In this document: piece after piece, positions 50,724 to 64,000 of the stretch
Layout: every line of letters begins with the position of its first letter
How positions within the stretch are numbered: the stretch's first letter is position 1
From: Termitomyces sp. T153
Lineage: Eukaryota > Basidiomycota > Agaricomycetes > Agaricales > Lyophyllaceae
DNA length: 64,000 nucleotides
Direction of reading: 5' to 3'
Assembly: GCA_018296165.2 (NCBI GenBank)
Contig: JACKQL020000022.1
Span: 434,001-498,000 of the forward strand
The notes under the pieces: model-generated
Told to the model about the DNA's origin: nothing
The model's input: the letters and a program-made list of their open reading frames with translations, nothing else
Database searches by the model: none
Program-made: the position numbers and the translations under genes

Positions 50724-51882
50724 TCATAAACGAGAAACGAGTCCAAGTGCAGGTACGAACTTGTAGTGTAAAGCTTTCGGTAGAGCCTTTGTTAAGATAT
50801 CAGCGATCATGTCCGACGTTGAAATCCAAGAAGTCGAGAAGGAACCAGTCTTTAATTGATCACGTATGAAGTGATAGCGTATGTCTATATGTTTTGATCT
50901 TGACGTCGTAGAGTCCGAATTCGCAATGTCAAGAGCACTCTTGTTGTCACAGAAAATTTGTAGAGGTCGAGGAACAGGAAGGTCAAGAGAAGTAAGTAGA
51001 AACCTGATGGAAATTGCTTCACGAATTGCATGAGATAATGCCATATATTCGGCCTCTGTTGACGATAACGCAACCGTTTTCTGTTTCGTCGAAGACCAAG
51101 ATACTAGGCTCGAGTAGAGGAAGAAGGCATATCCTGAGACACTTCGTCGAGTATCTGTATCCGAGGCCCAATCTGCATCAACAACCCCAAAATCTGCTGG
51201 CAGTATCAATCTCGTAGGTGGATCTGGTGACGGATGTGTGAAATTGTATTCCAATGCATAATCTCGCGTCCCGGATATGTATCGTAATACACGTTTTGCC
51301 ACAAGTAAGTGAGCTCGAGTCGGGTTAGAATTATATTGCCCCAGTGACATCGCTGTGAATGCTAGATCCGGTCGCGTACAAAGACTGAGATATAAGATCG
51401 ATCCAACTAGACGTTGATAGTGAACAGTGATTTCTTCATCAGGCACATCGGGTATCGAGTTAGGAGGAGGATCAGGCAGATCATGAATATTGCCATGAAG
51501 CGGAAGCGAGAGAGGTGATGCATCAAGCAGTTTATACATGGTGAGTAAGTCCAAAATGAACCCTTTCTGTGATAACCATAGTTTCCTGTTTTCCCGATCT
51601 CGATCAACCCAAATGCCCAGATAAAGACTTATTGGACCTGTATCTTTGACTTCGAAGTGTTTGTTGAGTTCAGCTATGATCCAATTGTACAGTGGAATTT
51701 AGTTCGTGGCATTAAGACCGTCGTCGACATGGATGCAAATCACGATTGGAAGCTCGCTATGATTTTCCAGCATGGGTATCGATGAGTGAGGAGGAGATGT
51801 GAAACGACCGAAGAATACTCCGTGATCCACGTTGCATCTAGTTAAACCTAAAGCCTCTAGTTTTTCACGCAAAACTGCATAC
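50724..51882 (-). pseudogene. copia-3 Pol, C-terminal part (reverse transcriptase end, RNase H)
   Basis: Minus strand. The reverse transcriptase palm ends with CIHVDDGLNATN, then a TAA stop near 51699. After that RLVGSILYLSLCTRPDLAF, VDADWASDTDTRRSVSGYAF, SSTEAEYMALSHAIREA and CDNKSALDIANS define the copia RNase H. It ends with STSDMIADILTKALPKALHY. It is the continuation of 61835-64000; gypsy-C separates the two parts. Confidence 0.9.
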
Positions 51883-52773
51883 TGATACGCCTGTCTCGAG
51901 TACGAGACAGGTTGAATATACTTAAAAGAAAGATAAGGAAATACCATTCAAAACAAGCTGAAAACCGTAAGCTTGGGTAAATGTCGAAAACTGTAGACAT
52001 AAAAACCTTACCTAGTATAAAAAGAATAGCACCAAAGAACCCAAGAAAGCACGCATTGAACGACGCCAACAGGACCTATGACGTCGAGAACAGCTGGTCA
52101 CGCATGTGATCAACGATCAATGGCTGTGCTCGGCAAAAACCGGCTAGAACAGCTAACCGATGCCGAGGACAGCCATAGACGTCTGAATGCATGGCAAAAA
52201 CCCTGCCTCCCCTCGACACCGCACGCCAGACCGTCCAGAGACCAGACCTAGCCACCATACAAACTACGCGGAGCCTGCTAAGAGAGGAGTGGAAAAAGAA
52301 AAAGAATGAGAAAAAGAGGTCGGACAAACGGATAACCGAATAACGCCGACCCAGCACGTCATCGCAAACGGCCAGCCAATAACGGAGAAAGGCCAAGAAA
52401 AACCACGCGGTACACCTATGGGCGCGTATGAAAAGGAGCCGGGTCCGTGCGCGTACAACGACCTATAAAAAGGAGAGCAGGATTGGGGGAGAGGGCAAGC
52501 AACGACGTACCACGGCTCGGCTAGCCCCAGGGAGCAGCTAACTTAGGCTTACGAGTATTTAGTTGGTTCGGGTTTTTATTTATATATATATATTTGAGCC
52601 CATTCAAAAGTTCGAGACCGTCTCAACTAGCGAATAAATCAATTTAATTATTATCTACGACCATAAATGTCTAAGTGAGCTTTCGTGTAACCTAAGCCTC
52701 CAAACTCTGTGAGAGTAAAGTTTGATCCGTTGATCCGATCAATTGACGACATCAAAACTTACATTTCGCATCA
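51883..52773 (+). repeat. gypsy-C 5' LTR
   Basis: 891 bp, TGATACGCCTG to TTTCGCATCA. TATAAAA at 52464-52470. Most differences from the 3' copy are C/T or G/A at CpG sites, with the 5' copy usually keeping the CpG. Confidence 0.95.
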
Positions 52774-52791: not shown

Positions 52792-52911
52792 GGGCTTTTG
52801 TTGCACAAAAACTTACTTTTGGATTTCCTTGAGGAAGTCCAACCCTTGTGAAACATTAGTTTTGCACCACCTGGGTCTTGGCCCAAAACACCTGAAGTTA
52901 TTGCAACCAAG

Positions 52912-54384
52912 GTGAAAAACTCTGTTACATTAAGGAAAAGAGAAACTAGGACCAATAGCAGTGGTTCAAAATCCTTTTTGCCTGACCCTGAAACCTTACT
53001 CAGAAAGAGAAAACTTCGGACTGAGAAAGTAATTTCAAGCTCACCAAAAGAACTGTACCCTACTACTCAACCAGTTTCTACTGCCTCAATTATGGAGCAA
53101 AATATCAGATATAAACTACCACTGCCTGACAGCAGGGATGCACCTAAGTTTAAGCACACTGAGCCCTCTGAGGTTCGTCGCTTTTTGCAAAGGATGATCT
53201 CTCTGTTTGAGCATGCTGGGATCCATGGAGATAAAGAAAGGAAAAAGAGAATCTTGGAGTATGTGGATGCTCAGACTGAACAGGAATGGCTGGGCTTTGA
53301 TTCCTTTGGAGATGACTATACTTGGTCTGCTTTTGAGAAAGAGATCAAGGAGTCTTATCCAGAAGCAGTGGATGACACAGGTAGTGTTGCCAACCTGGAC
53401 AGAATCTGCAGAGAACATGCCAGACTTAGTAGGAATGACACTACAGAAATCCATTCTCTAATAAGGAAATTTAGAGCTGAGGCTAAGAAGCTGGCTAATG
53501 TCACTGGGAATGGGTCCCTAGTAGACAAATTCCTGGGATGCTTTACACCAGCTTTTGGAGATGTGATTGAGGAGAGGTTGATCAGTAGATATGGCCACTA
53601 CAAAGACCCTGCTAGGAATAGGCACAAGGACAACAAATATGACCTATCAGAAGTGCTAACAGTAGTGGGGACCTTGATAGATGGTGCTACTGTAAGGAGC
53701 CCTAGAGAGGAAAGAGTAGAGAAAATGGAAACTAGTAGGGGAAACATTAAGGAGGAGGAAGTGGAGGAGAAAATGGCTCATCTCCAAGATACTGTGGTTA
53801 CCATTGGGAAACAAATAGGGAGCATCCAGAGTACCATGCAAGCTTTGCAAGCTGGTCAGTTGGACATGCGCAATACCTTCTTAAATACCAAAGGGAACCA
53901 AGGTATAAGGACAGAAGGGCCTCCTACATTTCCAACTTCTGGAAGAAGTGGTGTTACTTGCTTCTATTGTTGGCAAACTGGGCATAGAATTTCAGAGTGT
54001 GAAGTCATCAAGGGAGATGTACAAAAAGGATGGATCATCCTACTGGAAGGGAGAGCCAGGCTACCTAATGGTGCTCCTTTACCTAGGGATCCTGCTGGTA
54101 TATCTCCTCATGCTAGACTAGCACAAGTACATGATAAGCAGGTGAACATGTACTTTGGATGGCCAGAAGATGACCCTCCAGAGACAGTCACTTACTCTAC
54201 CTATGTGAACTCTGCTAGAGATACAAGGGATGACATGCTAGAGCGCCTTCAATATAAGGAGTCAGATTGCTTGGGAGACTTGGAGAAAGGTTTCAATAAA
54301 ATGGCTGAGATGCTCAGTGTGTTGATCAACACCAGAAACACAGCCAGCCCTGAGGGACAGAAATCTTCCTCTAAGGATTTTTAA
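52912..54384 (+). CDS. gypsy-C Gag polyprotein
   Basis: The frame is open from 52852; the first ATG is at 53092, giving 430 residues, so either that ATG is used or an upstream exon or start exists. A retrotransposon Gag/capsid region spans roughly 53150-53600 (VRRFLQRMISLFEHAGIHGD, EQEWLGFDSFGDDYTWSAFE, LVDKFLGCFTPAFGDVIEERL). A CCHC knuckle CFYCWQTGHRISEC is at 53959-54000. The frame ends in TTT TAA; the downstream protease frame is one back and open across this stop. Confidence 0.85.
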   Translation: MKNSVTLRKRETRTNSSGSKSFLPDPETLLRKRKLRTEKVISSSPKELYPTTQPVSTASIMEQNIRYKLPLPDSRDAPKFKHTEPSEVRRFLQRMISLFEHAGIHGDKERKKRILEYVDAQTEQEWLGFDSFGDDYTWSAFEKEIKESYPEAVDDTGSVANLDRICREHARLSRNDTTEIHSLIRKFRAEAKKLANVTGNGSLVDKFLGCFTPAFGDVIEERLISRYGHYKDPARNRHKDNKYDLSEVLTVVGTLIDGATVRSPREERVEKMETSRGNIKEEEVEEKMAHLQDTVVTIGKQIGSIQSTMQALQAGQLDMRNTFLNTKGNQGIRTEGPPTFPTSGRSGVTCFYCWQTGHRISECEVIKGDVQKGWIILLEGRARLPNGAPLPRDPAGISPHARLAQVHDKQVNMYFGWPEDDPPETVTYSTYVNSARDTRDDMLERLQYKESDCLGDLEKGFNKMAEMLSVLINTRNTASPEGQKSSSKDF

Positions 54385-54392
54385 ATAGCTCA

Positions 54393-55421
54393 ATGAAGGC
54401 AATCAGGAAAGAGGCATCTCAACCAGGAGTATCCTCATTGCCAGAGAGAACCCCTGAAAACCCCTGGAAAGAAAAGCTAACTCTGGTGATTCCACCTAGA
54501 GTTGCACCAAAACTGGACCTACCTTTTGAGAAGGTTCCAGCCCTCAATGAGGGACCAGACTTGCCAGTGCAGGACACTGTTAAAAGTTCCTTAACAGGAA
54601 CAAAGAGGAAGGAGTGGGATAGGACCATTGATAAACTCTGGGAGGCTACTGTACCTTTCAGTACTGGAGAACTGTTAGATGTGGCTCCTGGATTAAGAGA
54701 GGCAATGATACAAAAATTGACTCTCAAATCAGGGACTCAGTCTAGGGATCCTAATATCTCAAGAGTAGCAGTTCAACAGCAGACTGTAAGGGAAAAGAAA
54801 CCACCTGACAAAGTAGATGTCAATGACCTACCAATGGCAACCTATTTCATTGCAGATGGAACACAGGATGATTTGCCTACTGGTGCAGTAGTGCATCAGG
54901 ATTGTGTAGCCACTTACTTGGAAAATATCCCTCCAGGAGAAAAGCCAGTAGTGGTGTATGTGGCAAGAGATTTGCAAGTGTTGAGATCCTTGAACCCCAT
55001 TGTCAATCAGAGGGGACAAGTAGAGACAATTCTAGATAGTGGTTCTCAGATAGTCTGTATGGCACTAGATGAGGCACTTTGTTTAGGATTGACTTGGGAT
55101 CCAGACATATGCTTAAGGATGGAGAGTGCCAACAGTCAAGTGAATACATCAGTTGGTTTAGCCAAAAATGTGCCATTTACTTTTGCTGAAGGCTTCACCA
55201 TTTATCTACAAGTGCATATCTTTGTCAAGCCAGCTTATACTGTCTTGTTGGGTCGTCCATTTGACACACTGACAGAGAGCAACATACAAAACCTTCAAGA
55301 TGGCAGTGCCATCATAACTATCAGAGATCCTAATACTGGTCGCCGGACAGCCCTGCCCACTCTTCAAAGAGGGAAGGTGCCAAAGGCAGGTGTTGGAGGA
55401 GATAGTGATCCAGAATTTTAA
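54393..55421 (+). CDS. gypsy-C aspartic protease ORF
   Basis: 342 codons from ATG 54393, eight nt after the Gag stop. The first half is linker-like. The C-terminal part is a retropepsin: ETILDSGSQIVCMAL with the catalytic DSG at 55035-55043, and YTVLLGRPFD near 55250 as the closing segment. It matures the Gag and Pol products. The stop context (TTT TAA AT) is the same as at the end of Gag, and the Pol frame is again one base back and open from 55409. Confidence 0.85.
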   Translation: MKAIRKEASQPGVSSLPERTPENPWKEKLTLVIPPRVAPKLDLPFEKVPALNEGPDLPVQDTVKSSLTGTKRKEWDRTIDKLWEATVPFSTGELLDVAPGLREAMIQKLTLKSGTQSRDPNISRVAVQQQTVREKKPPDKVDVNDLPMATYFIADGTQDDLPTGAVVHQDCVATYLENIPPGEKPVVVYVARDLQVLRSLNPIVNQRGQVETILDSGSQIVCMALDEALCLGLTWDPDICLRMESANSQVNTSVGLAKNVPFTFAEGFTIYLQVHIFVKPAYTVLLGRPFDTLTESNIQNLQDGSAIITIRDPNTGRRTALPTLQRGKVPKAGVGGDSDPEF

Positions 55422-55462
55422 ATCTCAATGATCTGGTCAGTGACCAGGGAGAGGTGGCAGTA

Positions 55463-58400
55463 ATGTTAGGGGAGAAGGAGAATGGTGAAGTAATAGTGAC
55501 TGGATACACTATAAATCATAGTGGATTCAAGACCCTGGAGTTGAGAGATGTGTATCTGCAGGCCTTTGCTGCAGAGGGAGATATGAGAGGCAGAGATGAG
55601 AAGACATTAGCAGCCTATCTAAATAAGCAGCTGTGTCAGATACCAGAGGAGTTAGAGGAGGTCTTAGTACAGCAGGAAAGCCTAGAGCTAGAAGCAGGGG
55701 TAGGGGAAACTGCACAAGTATTCTCTAAGAAATACAAACCTGTTGCTAGAAAGGTGAGACCTGTACTAGGAACCTCTCCTGAGGAGTTTAGAATTGAAAG
55801 GTGTATCACTGGAGATCCACTAGCAGACATACCACAGTTGGACCCAAACCCACCTGAGTTCAAACCCACAGGGAGGTACACTGCTGAGTGCAAGGAAATC
55901 ATTGACCAAGTACATGGTGATGGTTTCTTATGGCCAGAGGAGATGAAGGCAGTACATCATCTAATGATGCTACAGGATGAGGCTTTTGCATGGGATGATT
56001 CTCAAAGAGGTAGGCTCAAGGAGGAATTCTTCCCTCCTGTAGTAATGCCAGTAATTCCTCACACCCCCTGGGTATTGAAGAACATTCCCATTGCTCCTGG
56101 ACTTAGAGATAAAATCTGCCAGATGATAAAGCAGAAAATTGAGGCAGGAGTATATGAGCCATCCAACTCTTCATACAGATCCCAGTGGTTCACAGTATTG
56201 AAGAAGGATGGTGAGAGTTTGAGGATAGTTCACAGCTTGGAACCTTTAAACAAGGTGACCATAGCACATTCTGGGTTGCCACCAGCAACTGAAGAGTTAG
56301 CTAGTCACTTTGCTGGCAGAGCTTGTGGAGGAATCTTTGACTTGTATGTGGGATATGATGAGAGAGTGTTGGATGTGAAGTCTAGGGACTATACCACCTT
56401 CCAGACACCCTTTGGTGCTCTAAGGTTGGTAACTCTGCCAATGGGCTGGACAAATTCAGTACCAATCTTTCATGATGACATTACCTTCATCTTGAAAGAT
56501 GAGATACCTCATGTAACTTGGCCATATATTGATGATGTGCCAATCAGAGGTCCACCTCATAGGTATGAGTTGCCAGATGGAGGCTATGAAGTTATCCCAG
56601 AAAACCCAGGCATTAGGAGGTTTGTATGGGAACATCTGCAAAATGTAAACAGAGTGTTACAAAGAATCAAATATGCTGGAGGAACTTTCTCTGGGAAAAA
56701 GTCAGTAGTCTGTGCAGATGAGATTGTAGTGGTTGGACACAGGTGTTCCTATGAGGGACAGAAACCTGAGACCAAGCGGTTGGCCATTGTTATGGGGTGG
56801 GGTGATTGCCAGGACAAGTCAGATGTCAGAGCTTTCCTAGGTACTTGTGGTACCTTTAGGATGTTCATTAAAGACTATGCTAAAGTGGCTGCACCTATCA
56901 ACAAATTGACTCAAAACCACACACCATTTGTTTGGGGTGAGGAACAGCAGTCAGCAATGGCTCAGTTGAAAAAGTTGCTAGCTGAAAGTGCACCTCTAAA
57001 ACCACTTGACTATGAGTCAGGAGGGGCAGTGGTCCTATCAGTTGACACTTCTTGGATGGCAGTGGGCTTTGGAATATTCCAGGAAGCTCCAGGCAATCCT
57101 AAACAACACACTTGTGCTAAGCTGGGATCCATCACCATGGATGAGAGGGAGGCAAGATTCTCACAACCTAAAAGAGAACTCTATGGTTTGATGAGAGCCT
57201 TGCAAGCTAATAAGTATTGGCAAGTTGGTTGTAGGAAGCTTGTAGTGGAGACAGATGCCAAGTATTCAAAGGGAATGCTAAGCAATCCTGGAGTAGGACC
57301 TAATGCCACCATCATGAGATGGATTGAGGATGTACTACTCTATCATTTTACTTTGAGGCATGTGCCAGGAGAAACCTTTAGTGTTGATGGTCTGTCTAGG
57401 AGGCTCAAGTGGCCAGGAGATGAGGAGTACCCACCTGTTAATCCAGAGTTGGTGGACAACCCAAAGACTATGCACTTTGAATATCCAGATAAAACCAACA
57501 ATGAACTAGGATGGGAGGATTGGGAGCCCTTAGCACTTGAAGAGTTTGCAGATCAAATTAACACTAGAGGTGGCTATCTACATACAGTAGCCATTGAAGT
57601 ATCAGATTTTGAACAAGAACTTGATAGAGCAAGGTCTCAAGAGATGGAACTTAGGAAGGCAGTTCTAAGTCAGCAGCAGACATCTAGAGTAGATCCTGTT
57701 GCAGTACTATCTCTCTCTCAGCCTCTGTTACCCACAGAAGGTACTGAGGAAGAAAAGGAAGCAGACTTACAAGCCTACTTAGAACATAGGAAGGGTAGTG
57801 AGAGTGAACAGTGGGATGACTTGCTACCAATTGTACAAAGCTGGCTACAAGACCCAAGCAAAGAACCTGAAAGTTTGAAGGGTTGGGACCCAGACAAGTT
57901 CAAAAGGTTTGCAAGACAGTTCTTCTTTGACCAAAAGGGGAGACTGTACAAGCGCAATCATGAGGCTAGGCATAAGCTAGTGGTCAATATTGATAAGCGA
58001 ATATTCATGCTTAAATCAGCCCATGATGCCTTAGGGCATAGAGGGACTTATGCAACCAAAATGTTAATACAAGAACAATTTTGGTGGCCAGGGATTGATG
58101 GAGATGTACAGTGGTATGTTGGGACTTGTCACAACTGTCAGATACGTCAGAAGACAGTTGTAAACAGAGCTCCCACAGTAACCTATACACCCTCTATCTT
58201 CCAAACAATTCACATTGATACCATGCACATGACTCCAGCTTCAAATGGCTGCAAGTATATTGTCCATGGTAGGTGTGCATTGTCTTCATGGATGGAAGGG
58301 AGGCCTCTGCGCAAAGAAAACCATAAAACAATTGGTCAATGGTTGTTTGAGGATGTGATTTGTCGCTGGGGTTGCATTGCAGGGATCATCACTGATAATG

Positions 58401-59254
58401 CTGGACAATTCAAAAAGGTCACAGCCTGGATAGAGAGTAAATATGGAATCAGAGGCATTGCCATCTCTCCATACAACTCTCAAGCTAATGGCAAAATTGA
58501 AAGACCACATTGGGATGTCAGGCAGGCTTTATTCAAAGCTTGTGAAGATCACACTAAATGGTTTTGGTTCTTCTTCCATGTAATGTGGAGTGATCGCATT
58601 ACTATTCGGCAGAGATTTGGGTGTTCACCATACTTCATGGTCACTGGAGCTCATCCAACTCTACCTTTGGACTTAGTAGAGGCTACCTGGTTAATAGAAT
58701 TACCAGAAGGACCATTATCTACAGAAGAGCTGATTGGGTATTGTGCTAGGGCTTTAGCCAAGCACCACCAGCATGTAGAAGAGATGAGGGAGAGAGTTGG
58801 GAAGGACAAACTCCAATGGGCCTTGAAGTTTGCAGAAGAGCATAAACACTCTATCAAAGACTTCAATTTCAAGCCTTTGGACTTAGTCTTGGTCAAGAAT
58901 ATGATTACAGAAAGTTCACACAGTGCTAAAATGCTGCCCCGTTTTCATGGTCCAATGGTAGTAATTGCTAAGACCAAGGGTGGTAATTACATTGTGGCAG
59001 AACTGGATGGGTCAGTTTGGCAGACCAGAGTTGCAGCTTTTAGAGTAGTCCCTTATAAAGCTCAAAGACAATTGGAGCTATCCCAGAGCCTAGAGCAATG
59101 GGTAGATATCACTCCAGAAAAGTTAAAAGAGTTAAGGGAGGAACTACAAAGGCCTACCATAAATGCTGTGTCAGATTTGTCATTCGGATCTATAAAGCTT
59201 CATGAGCCTCTAGATGATGACATGATAAAGTCGGACAATAGCCCCGAAAGTTGA
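55463..59254 (+). CDS. gypsy-C Pol: reverse transcriptase, RNase H, integrase
   Basis: An uninterrupted frame of about 1263 residues from its first ATG; it is open from 55409. Reverse transcriptase starts near 56070 (PWVLKNIPIAPG), with GGIFDLYVGYDE and the catalytic WPYIDDVPIRG at about 56520. RNase H follows near 57040 (VLSVDTSWMAVGFG, KRELYGLMRAL, VVETDAKYS). The integrase zinc finger is HDALGHRGTYATK and CHNCQIRQ (58020-58150). The core has HIDTMHM, GIITDNAGQFKK and NGKIERPH for D, D and E. A GPY/F-like module ends the protein (RFHGPMVVIAKTKGGNYIV). No chromodomain is seen. All catalytic residues are present. Confidence 0.93.
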   Translation: MLGEKENGEVIVTGYTINHSGFKTLELRDVYLQAFAAEGDMRGRDEKTLAAYLNKQLCQIPEELEEVLVQQESLELEAGVGETAQVFSKKYKPVARKVRPVLGTSPEEFRIERCITGDPLADIPQLDPNPPEFKPTGRYTAECKEIIDQVHGDGFLWPEEMKAVHHLMMLQDEAFAWDDSQRGRLKEEFFPPVVMPVIPHTPWVLKNIPIAPGLRDKICQMIKQKIEAGVYEPSNSSYRSQWFTVLKKDGESLRIVHSLEPLNKVTIAHSGLPPATEELASHFAGRACGGIFDLYVGYDERVLDVKSRDYTTFQTPFGALRLVTLPMGWTNSVPIFHDDITFILKDEIPHVTWPYIDDVPIRGPPHRYELPDGGYEVIPENPGIRRFVWEHLQNVNRVLQRIKYAGGTFSGKKSVVCADEIVVVGHRCSYEGQKPETKRLAIVMGWGDCQDKSDVRAFLGTCGTFRMFIKDYAKVAAPINKLTQNHTPFVWGEEQQSAMAQLKKLLAESAPLKPLDYESGGAVVLSVDTSWMAVGFGIFQEAPGNPKQHTCAKLGSITMDEREARFSQPKRELYGLMRALQANKYWQVGCRKLVVETDAKYSKGMLSNPGVGPNATIMRWIEDVLLYHFTLRHVPGETFSVDGLSRRLKWPGDEEYPPVNPELVDNPKTMHFEYPDKTNNELGWEDWEPLALEEFADQINTRGGYLHTVAIEVSDFEQELDRARSQEMELRKAVLSQQQTSRVDPVAVLSLSQPLLPTEGTEEEKEADLQAYLEHRKGSESEQWDDLLPIVQSWLQDPSKEPESLKGWDPDKFKRFARQFFFDQKGRLYKRNHEARHKLVVNIDKRIFMLKSAHDALGHRGTYATKMLIQEQFWWPGIDGDVQWYVGTCHNCQIRQKTVVNRAPTVTYTPSIFQTIHIDTMHMTPASNGCKYIVHGRCALSSWMEGRPLRKENHKTIGQWLFEDVICRWGCIAGIITDNAGQFKKVTAWIESKYGIRGIAISPYNSQANGKIERPHWDVRQALFKACEDHTKWFWFFFHVMWSDRITIRQRFGCSPYFMVTGAHPTLPLDLVEATWLIELPEGPLSTEELIGYCARALAKHHQHVEEMRERVGKDKLQWALKFAEEHKHSIKDFNFKPLDLVLVKNMITESSHSAKMLPRFHGPMVVIAKTKGGNYIVAELDGSVWQTRVAAFRVVPYKAQRQLELSQSLEQWVDITPEKLKELREELQRPTINAVSDLSFGSIKLHEPLDDDMIKSDNSPES

Positions 59255-59435: not shown

Positions 59436-60748
59436 TTACAACGTGGTGGCCTCTTGTACGAGTACGGGGGGACAGGGATTTTTCGGGGAGGAAGGGGTGA
59501 TTTCAATATCAGAATCGGAATCAACGATCTGGGTCTCTAAAGTAAATAAAAGCAAGTTGGGAAAGTTAAAAAGGGAGAAATACCTCAGGCAAAACTTGCA
59601 GATCGCTGAGCAGATCTCCGGTGCGTTCGACGTTGGAGGGGCCGAGAGTTTTGTCGAGACGAGCAAGGCGAACTGAGATAAGCTTATAAACTTGAAGGGC
59701 GATGTCGAGAGAATAAAGTTGTTGCTGGGCAGCGAGCTGAACGGCCTCACAATGTTTTTGAAGGTCGGCACGAGGGAGAAGAGCGTCGTCATCGGCAAGC
59801 TGGACAGTTTCGAGGGCGGCGTCGACCTGGCCGAGAAGCGAAAGCACGGCCTCGCTTCCAGGTTTGAGGTTGGCTGGGGGGAAAGGTCAGGAACAACAAA
59901 AAGAAAAGATGGGGATAAGGGACGGACAGAAGGCAGGAAGAACCTTAAGTTTTTTGGGTTTAGGCTTGCCATCAGGCTCCGTCTGTGATAAAAGAAGGGA
60001 TAAGATGTCGAAACGATGAGCGAGCAAGTCGAGTTTGTAAGCTAGACTTACGTTAGCTCGCCATTTGCCAGAACAAATAAGGGACGGACCTCACATGTCG
60101 ACGTCCTGATCCTGAGTTCGCCGCTTCAGCTGAAGGGGTAAGACAGCAGCCAAACAAAAGAAGAAGGGATTAAGGCATACCTCCTCTGCTTCCCGCTGGC
60201 GTTGGACCTCTGCTTCCCGCTGACGTTGGACCTCGCAACGATTTTTTTCGATTTGAAGGATAGTGTCGGTGAACGTGAGAAAGGACTGGACGTCGGTGGA
60301 GTTGTTTGCAACATTGCGATTGATCACAGGGAGGGTGGCGGTCAGGGAGTCAAAAAGACCCTTTTGCTTGGCAATACGCAGGAAGTCGGCCTGGTCGGCG
60401 AAGCGCTGAAGTAAGGGGAAGAAGGATGAAGAAGGTAAAAGAAAAGACGAAAAGGGAACTCACCAGCTGCATGGTGCCGAGATATCGGGCGCGGTCAGCC
60501 CGAGTACCAGGGATGCCAGCTGCGACCCTGCAGAAGCCAATAATGGCCTGGGCAAACAGGGGAAGCTGGAGGATGGCTAGGATAACTTGTTGCGCGTCAC
60601 GCTTAACAGAGCGCTGAAGAAGGGCAAAATTGTCGGGCGAGTCTTGGCCAGAACTTGGACGAGCGGTTGGAGGTGCGCGAGGAAGTTTGGCGGCAGGACC
60701 CGCAGGGTTTTTGCGAGGCGCGGTAGGAATAAGATGGTTGGGTGCCAT
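59436..60748 (-). CDS. gypsy-C antisense gene, six exons, about 350 aa, helical protein of unknown function
   Basis: Read on the minus strand the exons are 60748-60464, 60405-60181, 60129-60095, 60046-59928, 59873-59584 and 59534-59436. Introns are 58, 51, 48, 54 and 49 nt, all GT-AG, and the joined frame has no stop over 1053 nt. The start is ATG 60748 with a Pro/Ala-rich N-terminus. A helical region follows (NFALLQRSVKRDAQQVILAIL, DFLRIAKQKGLFDSL), then a charged repeat QRQREAEVQRQREAEE, LAYKLDLLAHRFDILSLLL, a basic KPKPKKLK, and a long helix with ALETVQLADDDALL and HCEAVQLAAQQQLYSL. The acidic end IVDSDSDIEI resembles a SUMO-interacting motif. Composition is CpG- and GC-richer than gag-pol. 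I recognise no enzyme family. The third and fifth introns' exact acceptors are my choice to keep frame. Confidence 0.72.
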
Positions 60749-60930
60749 TGCTGCAGGAGGGATGGGTCGTGGTGAGCGCGTCCTTATAGGACAGCGGATG
60801 CGATCGAAGAAAAAGAAAAATTTGAACGAAAAATTGAATTCTTTGTCGAAATTTTCTGGGGGTGATCACGTGCGTGAACAAGTTTTCCGACAAAAACACA
60901 GGAGACCTGACTGGGGGCAGTCAGTAAAAT
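60749..60930 (-). promoter_or_regulatory. Presumed promoter region of the antisense gene
   Basis: The only DNA between the antisense start and the 3' LTR. No clear TATA box is seen on the minus strand; the LTR beyond it could also supply promoter activity. Inference from position. Confidence 0.3.
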
Positions 60931-60943
60931 GGTGTGGGGGAGG
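60931..60943 (+). promoter_or_regulatory. gypsy-C polypurine tract
   Basis: GGTGTGGGGGAGG directly before the 3' LTR. Confidence 0.75.
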
Positions 60944-61834
60944 TGATACGCCTGTCTCGAGTACGAGACAGGTTGAATATACTTAAAAGAAAGATAAGGA
61001 AATACCATTCAAAACAAGCTGAAAACCGTAAGCTTGGGTAAATGTCGAAAACTGTAGACATAAAAACCTTACCTAGTATAAAAAGAATAGCACCAAAGAA
61101 CCCAAGAAAGCACGCATTGAATGACGCCAACAGGACCTATGACGTCGAGAACAGCTGGTCACGCATGTGATCAACGATCAATGGCTGTGCTTGGCAAAAA
61201 CTGGCTAGAACAGCTAACCAATGCCGAGGACAGCCATAGACGTCTGAATGCATGGCAAAAACCCTGCCTCCCCTCGACACCGCACGCCAGACCGTCCAGA
61301 GACCAGACCTAGCCACCATACAAACTACGCGGAGCCTGGTAAGAGAGGAGTGGAAAAAGAAAAAGAATGAGAAAAAGAGGTCGGACAAACGGATAACCGA
61401 ATAACGCCGACCCAGCACGTCATCGCAAACGGCCAGCCAATAACGGAGAAAGGCCAAGAAAAACCACGCGGTACACCTATGGGCACGTATGAAAAGGAGC
61501 CAGGTCCGTGCGCGTACAACGACCTATAAAAAGGAGAGCAGGATTGGGGGAGAGGGCAAGCAACGACGTACCACGGCTCGGCTAGCCCCAGGGAGCGGCT
61601 AACTTAGGCTTACGAGTATTTAGTTGGTTCGGGTTTTTATTTATATATATATATTTGAGCCCATTCAAAAGTTCGAGACCATCTCAACTAGCAAATAAAT
61701 CAATTTAATTATTATCTACGACTATAAATGTCTAAGTGAGCTTTCGTGTAACCTAAGCCTCCAAACTCTGTGAGAGTAAAGTTTGATCCGTTGATCCGAT
61801 CAATTGACGACATCAAAACTTACATTTCGCATCA
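60944..61834 (+). repeat. gypsy-C 3' LTR
   Basis: 891 bp, same ends as the 5' LTR and aligning without gaps. Confidence 0.95.
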
Positions 61835-64000
61835 ATACCATTCATGAGAAGCCTGTTTGAGTCCGTATAGGGCACGTAAAGCACGATTGACTTTCTTTGG
61901 GTTGGGGTCGGGGAAACCAGGTATCTGTTTCAAGTATATCTCATGCGTTAGCGGTGCGTTGAGAAAGGCAGTCTTGACATCAAAACAAAAGAGTTCGAGG
62001 TTATGAAGTGCTGCGTATGCCAGTGTGATTCGGATACTCGTCATCTTGGCGACTGGAGCGTACGTGGAACCATAGTCCTCTGGACGTTGGCTAAAGCCTT
62101 GTGCAACTAACTGAGCTTTCTCTTTCCCTGCGATTGTTGTACCGTCTGGATTATATTTGTGAGCATATACCCATCTTACTCCAATTGCTTTTCGACCCAG
62201 TGGAAGATCTGTAGGTGTGAAAAAATTTGAGCACAAAGACTCTCAACTTCTCGTTCCATTGCTGCTTGCCATATGTGGGCATCGCTATGATGTGTTGCTT
62301 CATAATAGTTTTCTGGTGGTTTGGTAAGATCGTATTGTCGAGGCGTTCGAAAACGAAGAGGATCAGGTCCATAAGTAATATAGGCTTTGAAATCTGAGAG
62401 AACAGGTACTTCCAGTGAAGTTAGATCATCAACTGAATCAGAGAAATTGGCAGTTGCCATCAATGCATTTATATCGAGTATTGCTGATAGTCCTTGATGA
62501 GGATTGAGTCGAGATTGTCAATTAGCTCGAAGACGTGTGAGTTTTTCGTTTCGTTGTGCTATTTCTTCTATGAAGGCTTGTCCTGCAGGTGTATGTTTTA
62601 TCGTTCATTTTGGTCGAGAGTGATTTGATTCTGATGGTTGTAGAGGTTCGATATATTGATCAGATTGCGCTATTGTAGGTGATACAGTTTGAGGACAAAG
62701 AGAGAGAGATGGTTCGATTTCGGTTTCTTGTGCCTCTGATGTACGATCCGGAGATTGGGATTTTGTTTGAGATGATGAAGCTTTAAGATGACCACGAGTA
62801 TTTTCATTGAATATAACATCCCTTGAAAAGAAATATCGACCGTTCATGTCACGAACACGCCAGCCTATTCGATTTTCATCATAACCTATGAAAATTGCTT
62901 CAAATCTACGTATATCCCCTTTTCGGCGAGTTTCTTTAGGATGAAGGACAAAGCACTGGCAACCCCATACGCGAAGGTGTGATAAGTCGGGCTTGGAACC
63001 TTCCATGACTTCAAAGGGTGTTACAAGTGTCGGTAGAGTCGATGTTGGTAATCGGTTTCGAAGATACTGTGCAGTAAGGATAGCATCACCTAGAAAAGAC
63101 ATGGGTAGGCCAGATTCTGCCATCAGTGTTTGAGCTGTATCTTCAATTGTCCTAATATATCTTTCAGCCTTTCCATTCTGCTGGTGGGCATAAGGTGCTG
63201 TTGGTTGTATGATGATGCCTTGTTCATTGAGGAAATCTCGTAGATTACCCTGGATGAATTCCTTCGCACCATCGCAACGTACTGCTCGAACTTTATTTCC
63301 TGATTTCAGTTCCCATTGAGCAGCTGTTGACTTGAAATGATCACAGGCCTGATCACACGTGGTAAGTAATGCAGTACTCCCGAGATTAGAGAAATCGTCT
63401 AGAATGGAGTGGAAATGATGGGAATGTCCATTCGCAAATTGTACAGGAAATGGACCACAAGAGTCCATGTGTAACAATTCACATATGTCATTTGCGTGAC
63501 AACCAAAATTGTCATAAGGGCAAGCTGGTTGTTTACCAAGGATGCAAGGAATGCAATGATCATCTTCTATTCAGCCAACGTATTCAACCCCAGATGCGTA
63601 GTTCTTAGTCAAAGCAGCTCGAGTTGTATCTTGACTAGGATGACCAAAATGACGATGCCAGAGGGTAGCTGTAGCGGGAATTCTTGGAAACAATGTTTGT
63701 GGCGTTTCTAAGGCAGGAAAGGCCACGGAACTATCATGAATAGGTAATACAAAATCACAATATAGAAACGAGAGCTTATTGTGGATCGTTGCCTGCATAG
63801 CTTTGCCTTGGAGTTCATGAAAAGATGATGGGAAGAAAATTGATGCGGATTCATGTTCGAAAAGAAGAGTCAGATTGTTTTCGACCATGGTTCCAACCGA
63901 TAATAGATTGATTGGGATATCTGGAGCATAAAGACAGTCTGGTAGCTTGAGTATGACGTTCTTTCCATTTACATGAGCTCGAAAACGGACTTCACCCCAA
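61835..64000 (-). pseudogene. copia-3 Pol, N-terminal part (pre-integrase, integrase, start of reverse transcriptase), partial at window end
   Basis: Minus strand, running in from beyond 64000. GAG-pre-integrase has LWHRHFGHPSQDTTRAAL (near 63640) and CIPCILGKQPA. The integrase core has LLHMDSCGPFPVQF, VRAVRCDGAKEF and APYAHQQNGKAERYIRTIED (63140-63480). Reverse transcriptase starts with AIGVRWVYAHKYNPDGT and FDVKTAFLNAPLTHEIY and reaches QASHEWY at the gypsy-C insertion site. Lesions: TGA stops at about 63571 and 62605 where Arg CGA fits, and a frameshift near 62225. It was therefore already dead, or died independently, next to the still-intact gypsy-C. Confidence 0.9.

What the first reader, a model, noticed from the sequence alone, without database searches (positions are those of the whole stretch)
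59436..60748. A six-exon gene carried on the antisense strand of a young, nearly intact gypsy element
Between pol and the 3' LTR of gypsy-C the minus strand can be read as six exons with five 48-58 nt GT-AG introns and an unbroken frame of about 350 codons. An intron-bearing gene can only survive retrotransposition if it lies antisense to the genomic RNA, because its introns are not recognised there. That is the orientation seen. The protein is unlike any retroelement product I know: helical, with a QRQREAE repeat, a KPKPKKLK basic patch and an acidic IVDSDSDIEI tail. It could be a captured host gene or an accessory factor of the element, for example acting on silencing, SUMO-linked chromatin or nuclear import.
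Basis: partly seen in the sequence, partly recalled or inferred. Interest (0 to 1): 0.88.

Follow-up and report, generated by a model that had tools for sequence, protein, structure and literature searches.

The report
Spliced antisense gene in mushroom retrotransposon
A family of jumping elements in a termite-farmed mushroom carries, on its backward strand, a real five-intron protein gene kept by natural selection, and this gene has been exchanged together with the element's control region, so it looks like the element's own regulator.

Summary
The gene is real. Its six-exon, five-intron antisense structure between pol and the 3' LTR recurs in sister copies: introns drift, exon lengths and frame hold. 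Two CpG-rich subfamilies differ by 95 synonymous and 24 amino-acid changes (dN/dS 0.065; codon positions 18/9/92). The window copy itself is broken by a TGA in exon 3, so 'unbroken' is wrong here.

Three database searches gave 69, 88 and 27 hits, all Termitomyces except four from Tephrocybe rancida and four unnamed ENA entries. All 60 gene loci with a listed integrase within 5 kb are tail-to-tail with it. A sister family (integrase 73% identical) has the same five introns at 33% protein identity.

New: gag-pol is about 98% identical between elements whose gene and U3 are only 42-67% alike. Gene distance tracks U3 (rho 0.87) better than pol (0.52). I read it as an element-encoded, probably nuclear regulator of its own LTR. 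Antisense genes are known in plant gypsy elements, Boty and HTLV: a new variant. No RNA evidence.

The parts
51883..52773 (+). 5' LTR (891 bp)
   Evidence: blastn against the 3' LTR, 98.8%, 11 mismatches
60944..61834 (+). 3' LTR; U3 taken here as about 60944-61500, R-U5 as about 61503-61834 (boundary inferred from similarity blocks)
51879..51882 (.). target-site duplication ATAC, left
   Evidence: sequence
61835..61838 (.). target-site duplication ATAC, right
   Evidence: sequence
52852..54384 (+). gag-like ORF (stop to stop) with a weak zinc-knuckle match
   Evidence: Pfam zf-CCHC E 0.022, below cut-off
54375..55421 (+). protease-like ORF (stop to stop)
   Evidence: Pfam aspartyl protease E 0.005, below cut-off
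55409..59254 (+). pol ORF, 1281 codons (RNase H, integrase zinc domain)
60931..60943 (+). polypurine tract-like GGTGTGGGGGAGG before the 3' LTR
   Evidence: sequence
60781..60788 (-). TATA-like box of the antisense gene, 40 nt before ATG; TATAA present in 15 of 19 aligned copies
60464..60748 (-). antisense gene, exon 1 (ATG at 60748)
60406..60463 (-). intron 1 (58 nt)
60181..60405 (-). exon 2
60130..60180 (-). intron 2 (51 nt)
60090..60129 (-). exon 3; in this copy it holds an in-frame TGA at 60093-60091
60042..60089 (-). intron 3 (48 nt, GTCCGT...branch-like GCTAAC...CTAG)
59928..60041 (-). exon 4 (Lys-rich NLS-like patch)
59874..59927 (-). intron 4 (54 nt)
59584..59873 (-). exon 5
59535..59583 (-). 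intron 5 (49 nt; acceptor uncertain by up to three codons)
59436..59534 (-). exon 6, acidic tail, stop TAA 59438-59436

Best explanation
A resident accessory gene of a Ty3/gypsy lineage of Lyophyllaceae fungi. Shown by comparison: a six-exon protein gene on the strand opposite to gag-pol, under purifying selection, tail-to-tail with pol, older than the split of two element families, and inherited as a module with the LTR/U3 while gag-pol is shared between lineages by recombination. Inferred: it is transcribed from its own TATA promoter between the polypurine tract and its ATG. Its introns persist because the genomic RNA carries them as unrecognised antisense sequence. The protein (N-terminal globular domain, long helix, Lys-rich NLS-like patch, helical hairpin, acidic tail) enters the nucleus and, acting in trans, tunes transcription or copy number through the U3 of its own lineage, much as HBZ/APH proteins act on HTLV LTRs.
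For: Gene: conserved splice sites and frame with drifting introns; dN/dS 0.065, codon positions 18/9/92, p 2e-23, and stops in all five other frames of the exon alignment; 69, 88 and 27 database homologues. Element-borne: 60 of 60 gene loci with a listed integrase within 5 kb are tail-to-tail, and 59 of 90 listed pol>=80% elements carry it. Age: sister family with the same introns, 33% identity. Module: gag-pol about 98% against gene 48-67% and U3 42-50%; pol dS 0.06-0.11 against gene dS 0.49 and 1.66; gene-U3 rho 0.87 over 153 pairs, gene-pol rho 0.52 over 136 pairs. Trans action: two examined deletion derivatives without the gene share one junction but lie in different flanks, so they moved after losing it; a third place has the same two end matches. 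TATA box in 15 of 19 copies. Same order of predicted structural elements in both families.
Against: No transcript or protein evidence. No credible Pfam, PHROGs or PDB relative, and no convincing fold match, so the regulatory role is inference. Gene and U3 are neighbours, so linkage alone could give part of their correlation, though pol is equally near. U3-RU5 (0.90), pol-RU5 (0.76), gene-RU5 (0.74) and pol-U3 (0.60) also correlate. Some young elements lack the gene, and 31 of 90 listed pol>=80% loci have no hit, some at contig ends. No TATA box was seen in the 150 bases upstream in the sister family. Within one recent burst dN/dS is 0.5-1.03 on few changes.
Confidence: 0.45

Rival explanations
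1. Structural or replication accessory factor (for example nuclear entry of the integration complex, particle or chromatin targeting) rather than a regulator of the LTR; it varies with U3 only because both lie in the 3' segment.
For: Conserved Lys-rich patch and long helix; it sits where env-like and accessory genes sit; deletion derivatives show it can act in trans or be dispensable.
Against: gag-pol, its expected partner, is shared almost unchanged between lineages whose gene is only 48-67% alike in DNA, so gene and gag-pol do not look co-adapted.
Confidence: 0.27
2. Anti-silencing factor counteracting host DNA methylation or RNAi, diverging in an arms race.
For: The host erodes old copies at CpG (o/e 0.00-0.15 in 15 of the 19 copies aligned; values); the protein differs widely between lineages.
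Against: Between close subfamilies the gene is strongly constrained (0.065), not positively selected; divergence by descent plus module exchange explains the difference.
Confidence: 0.13
3. The antisense RNA itself is the effector (dsRNA/siRNA control of the element) and the protein matters little.
For: Convergent transcription with pol would give dsRNA; proposed for plant elements (PMC7264820, passages).
Against: Strong third-position bias and dN/dS 0.065 need selection on protein.
Confidence: 0.1
4. Recently captured host gene hitch-hiking in the element.
For: Host-like introns and splice sites.
Against: Present with the same introns in two element families, with homologous proteins in Tephrocybe; all 74 loci checked have element sequence (60 with a listed integrase; 14 of the other 30 fetched, all with pol or LTR pieces).
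Confidence: 0.04
5. Chance open frames and splice-like sites.
For: The window copy has a TGA.
Against: The comparative tests.
Confidence: 0.01

Closest known systems
Antisense aORF-3R of plant Ty3/gypsy elements (maize Grande gene23, rice RIRE2, Silene Retand ORF4/TRP28, PvRetro13); PMC7264820 and PMC11963269, passages read
   Different: Here five introns, a basidiomycete host, no TRP28 (Transposase 28) or other credible Pfam domain, measured purifying selection and module exchange with U3. The word 'intron' occurs 0 times in either main text.
brtn of Boty/BcGypsy1 in Botrytis cinerea (Zhao 2011, Virology 417:248: title seen in reference lists only; PMC8365987: passages)
   Same: Additional antisense gene in a fungal gypsy element.
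   Different: Ascomycete element; its sequence, introns and position were not seen here, so homology is untested.
HBZ / APH antisense proteins of HTLV-1 to -4 (PMC10186651, passages)
   Same: Antisense, spliced transcript; protein found in the nucleus (APH-3 also in cytoplasm) that acts on the virus's own LTR or replication.
   Different: HTLV promoters lie in the 3' LTR; no bZIP found here; five introns; orphan sequence; function here only inferred.
Immunity regions of temperate phages (recalled, no call)
   Same: Regulator and its target region exchanged together between otherwise near-identical genomes.
   Different: Analogy of pattern only; binding to U3 not shown.

Membership tests
Ty3/gypsy LTR retrotransposon | two LTRs, short target duplication, polypurine tract | tested here: met
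Ty3/gypsy LTR retrotransposon | pol order RT-RNase H-integrase | tested here: met
   Pfam RNase H then integrase zinc domain; an RT-like YIDD motif is visible before them in the translation, but no RT Pfam model was listed
[quoted passage not shown]
   59 of 90 listed pol>=80% elements, 60 of 60 tail-to-tail
Retand-type TRP28 antisense protein | Transposase 28 domain PF04195 | tested here: not met
   no such Pfam match among 10 and 22 family members scanned
HBZ-type antisense protein | bZIP domain | tested here: not met
   no bZIP Pfam match; APH-2, -3 and -4 also lack it (PMC10186651)
HBZ-type antisense protein | antisense promoter in the 3' LTR | tested here: inconclusive
   a TATA box lies between the polypurine tract and ATG in 15 of 19 copies; no transcript data
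HBZ-type antisense protein | spliced transcript | tested here: inconclusive
   conserved introns by comparison, no RNA
Boty brtn | sequence homology | not tested
   no brtn sequence at hand
captured host gene | a host orthologue outside elements | tested here: inconclusive
   none among 74 loci checked; 16 of 90 gene loci not examined, and only 150 of 244 gene matches were listed

The most novel reading that the evidence does not exclude
The gene and U3 form an 'immunity-region' module: each lineage's antisense protein recognises only its own U3 and sets its copy number. Lineages that swap this module onto a common gag-pol escape each other's control, and gene-less derivatives are mobilised but still regulated in trans.
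Probability: 0.22. Interest if true: 0.82.

Novelty: new variant of a known kind. Interest (0 to 1): 0.62.

Why it matters
Antisense accessory genes of LTR elements are known mainly as genes without a function. Here is one with a clean five-intron structure (so spliced reads would prove strand and expression at once), measured selection, a homologue series from 99% to about 30% identity, natural gene-less derivatives, and a candidate target (U3) that varies with it. That makes the question 'what does an antisense retroelement gene do?' directly testable. It also suggests that many 'hypothetical proteins' in Termitomyces annotation are transposon genes.

Tried and rejected
A first comparative model that fused exons 3 and 4 (read-through of intron 3) was used for the first protein query and the first genome protein query. 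It was dropped because L031 and L039 cannot be read that way and the intron-3 sites are conserved; public gene models differ on the same point.

Literature: among the rows listed by the searches I saw no paper on such a gene in Termitomyces or any basidiomycete. The library holds only open-licence papers, the lists were capped, and only titles and starts of abstracts were seen except for the passages cited. PMC5408684 (bdelloid elements) was searched by term only; the passages mention no antisense intron-bearing gene.

one 'other arrangement' among the 34 pol<80% rows was counted and not followed up. In that group only 2 of 34 had a hit, but the query misses the sister family's gene, which one look by eye found.

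Full report
Check of the observation. The window lies in a 72-Mb genome. The 69 protein relatives of the first search are all from Termitomyces, so the host is taken to be a Termitomyces (inference). The element spans LTRs 51883-52773 and 60944-61834 (891 bp, 11 mismatches) with target duplication ATAC, and is inserted in a copia element. pol is open. Exon 3 of this copy holds TGA (60093-60091), so the frame is broken here; copies with open frames exist.

Comparative gene model. A DNA search gave 51 matches in the genome. From the 28 loci then at hand I aligned 19 copies of the window's kind: L006 and L025 were dropped as identical to L005 and L024, and L011, L012, L015, L020, L022, L027 and L028 were left out as interrupted or partial. 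Seven of a second kind were aligned later. Exon lengths in most copies of the first kind are 285, 225 or 201, 40, 114 or 120, 289-290 and 99-102 nt. Introns range 57-69, 47-61, 48-49, 50-54 and 48-53 nt in the first kind (L014, cut before intron 5, aside), and are 49, 56, 51, 58 and 51 nt in L029. Donors and acceptors stay GT-AG in most copies. Of these 26 copies 10 are open throughout (L003, L004, L005, L007, L029, L030, L031, L037, L038, L039), and 7 of the 10 keep all five GT-AG pairs; L003 and L004 have a changed intron-4 donor, and L039 has a GC donor in intron 5 and an intron 1 of only 25 nt. L029-L034 and L037-L039 were picked from the hit lists, partly because their frames looked long, so the second set is not a random sample; L033 and L034 were fetched but not spliced.

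Selection. L030 against L039: 346 codons, 95 synonymous and 24 non-synonymous differences, dS 0.486, dN 0.032, ratio 0.065, introns 24% different. Differences by codon position are 18/9/92 (p 2e-23); the other five frames of the same exon alignment hold 3 to 18 stops. Other pairs: L030-L031 0.157, L039-L031 0.154, L004-L001 0.181, L004-L003 0.285, L004-L005 0.182, L004-L007 0.211, L004-L030 0.226 and L004-L031 0.148 (the last two with saturated dS), L005-L007 0.378 (two CpG-decayed copies). Within a recent burst (L029, L030, L037, L038) four pairs give 0.51-1.03 on 10 to 26 changes, as expected after insertion. These are simple Nei-Gojobori counts and CpG decay inflates some of them.

Distribution. 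Of 124 integrase matches, 90 are at least 80% identical; 59 of these have a gene match on the opposite strand within 4 kb downstream, none in another arrangement; in the other 34 the numbers are 2 and 1. Of 90 gene loci merged from 150 listed exon hits, 60 have a listed integrase within 5 kb and all 60 are tail-to-tail. Of the other 30, I had fetched 14: 11 hold pol pieces and 3 only LTR pieces; 16 were not examined. These are lower bounds: 150 of 244 gene matches were listed, and 121 of 666 integrase candidates were scored. A sister family with integrase at 73% has a homologous gene with all five introns in the same places (L040), 33% identical to L030. Database searches found 69, 88 and 27 proteins; named ones are Termitomyces except four from Tephrocybe rancida, also Lyophyllaceae; four ENA entries are unnamed. 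Each search scored only about 8,000 candidates, so absence elsewhere is not shown.

Mosaic. Along the element, window and C13 agree at 94-99% in most 200-base bins from 52801 to 59200, then fall to 48-65% over the gene and 43-50% over U3; R-U5 is mostly 64-75%. Against C59 the gene is 49-67% and U3 42-48%, with pol at 94-99%. pol dS is 0.112 (window-C13), 0.061 (window-C59) and 0.089 (C13-C59), against gene dS 0.486 for L030 (99% like C13) against C59, and 1.66 for L004-L030. Equal synonymous clocks cannot give this, so gag-pol and the LTR-gene segment have been recombined (inference). Among 18 copies, transversion distances of the gene follow U3 (rho 0.87, 153 pairs) more than the equally near 3' end of pol (0.52, 136 pairs); U3-RU5 0.90, pol-RU5 0.76, gene-RU5 0.74, pol-U3 0.60. 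Pairs are not independent, so no p-value is given.

Dispensability in cis. C133 and C8 carry elements lacking window 60678-59495, with the same junction and a GAGGAAG repeat at the ends; they are 98.9% identical to each other but flanked by different host DNA. C25 shows the same two end matches but was not fetched. So elements without the gene have moved, presumably with it supplied in trans. C94 has about 250-300 nt between pol and the polypurine tract and no gene match.

Protein. AlphaFold2 for P0021 (45 sequences) has mean pLDDT 72, with residues about 41-170 mostly above 90: a short hairpin, helices, then a helix of about 60 residues; a helical hairpin at 228-298 is moderate and the tails are disordered. 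P0081 of the sister family, 31% identical to P0021, gives the same order of elements. A Lys-rich patch lies in exon 4; two of its lysines are invariant in A1 and nearly so in A3, but one is replaced in Tephrocybe P0125 and P0129. Calling it an NLS is recall. No credible domain or fold match was found.

How it works. Shown: real gene, selected, element-borne, modular with the LTR. Inferred: own promoter (TATA box 40 nt before ATG in the window, TATAA in 15 of 19 copies; none seen in the sister family), splicing, nuclear location, action in trans on U3. The nearest working parallels are HTLV antisense proteins (PMC10186651, passages) and, by position, plant aORF-3R genes (PMC7264820, PMC11963269, passages). 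A fungal antisense gene, brtn, is in print (title seen in reference lists; PMC8365987 passages).

Verdict. The gene itself: about 0.97 sure. Regulator of its own LTR: 0.45. New variant of a known kind.

Noticed in passing
window 54375-54384 and 55409-55421: gag-, protease- and pol-like ORFs lie in three frames, each -1 to the one before, overlapping by 10-13 nt; both junctions share TTTTAAAT and a nearby TCAATGA, also seen in C13. Frameshift or re-initiation not resolved.
   Followed up: partly
window 50724-51947 and 61832-63999: The gypsy element is inserted in the pol of a minus-strand copia element, with target duplication ATAC.
   Followed up: partly
window, 8-kb bins: CpG observed/expected varies from 0.01 to 0.94 along the window, and old element copies fall to near 0: methylation-like decay of transposons.
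   Followed up: partly
L035, L036 (C133, C8), probably C25: An internal-deletion derivative without the antisense gene has inserted at different places with the same junction.
   Followed up: partly
L005/L006 and L024/L025: Gene regions in two pairs of different contigs are identical, which suggests haplotype duplicates or recent segmental copies in the assembly.
   Followed up: no
window 60042-60089: Intron 3 is 48 nt and can be read through in frame in L003, L004, L005 and L007; public gene models differ on keeping it. Intron retention could give a second isoform in that subfamily only.
   Followed up: partly
P0123 (Termitomyces J132): A database gene model fuses exons of this family with an integrase piece, probably a rearranged copy or mis-annotation.
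   Followed up: no
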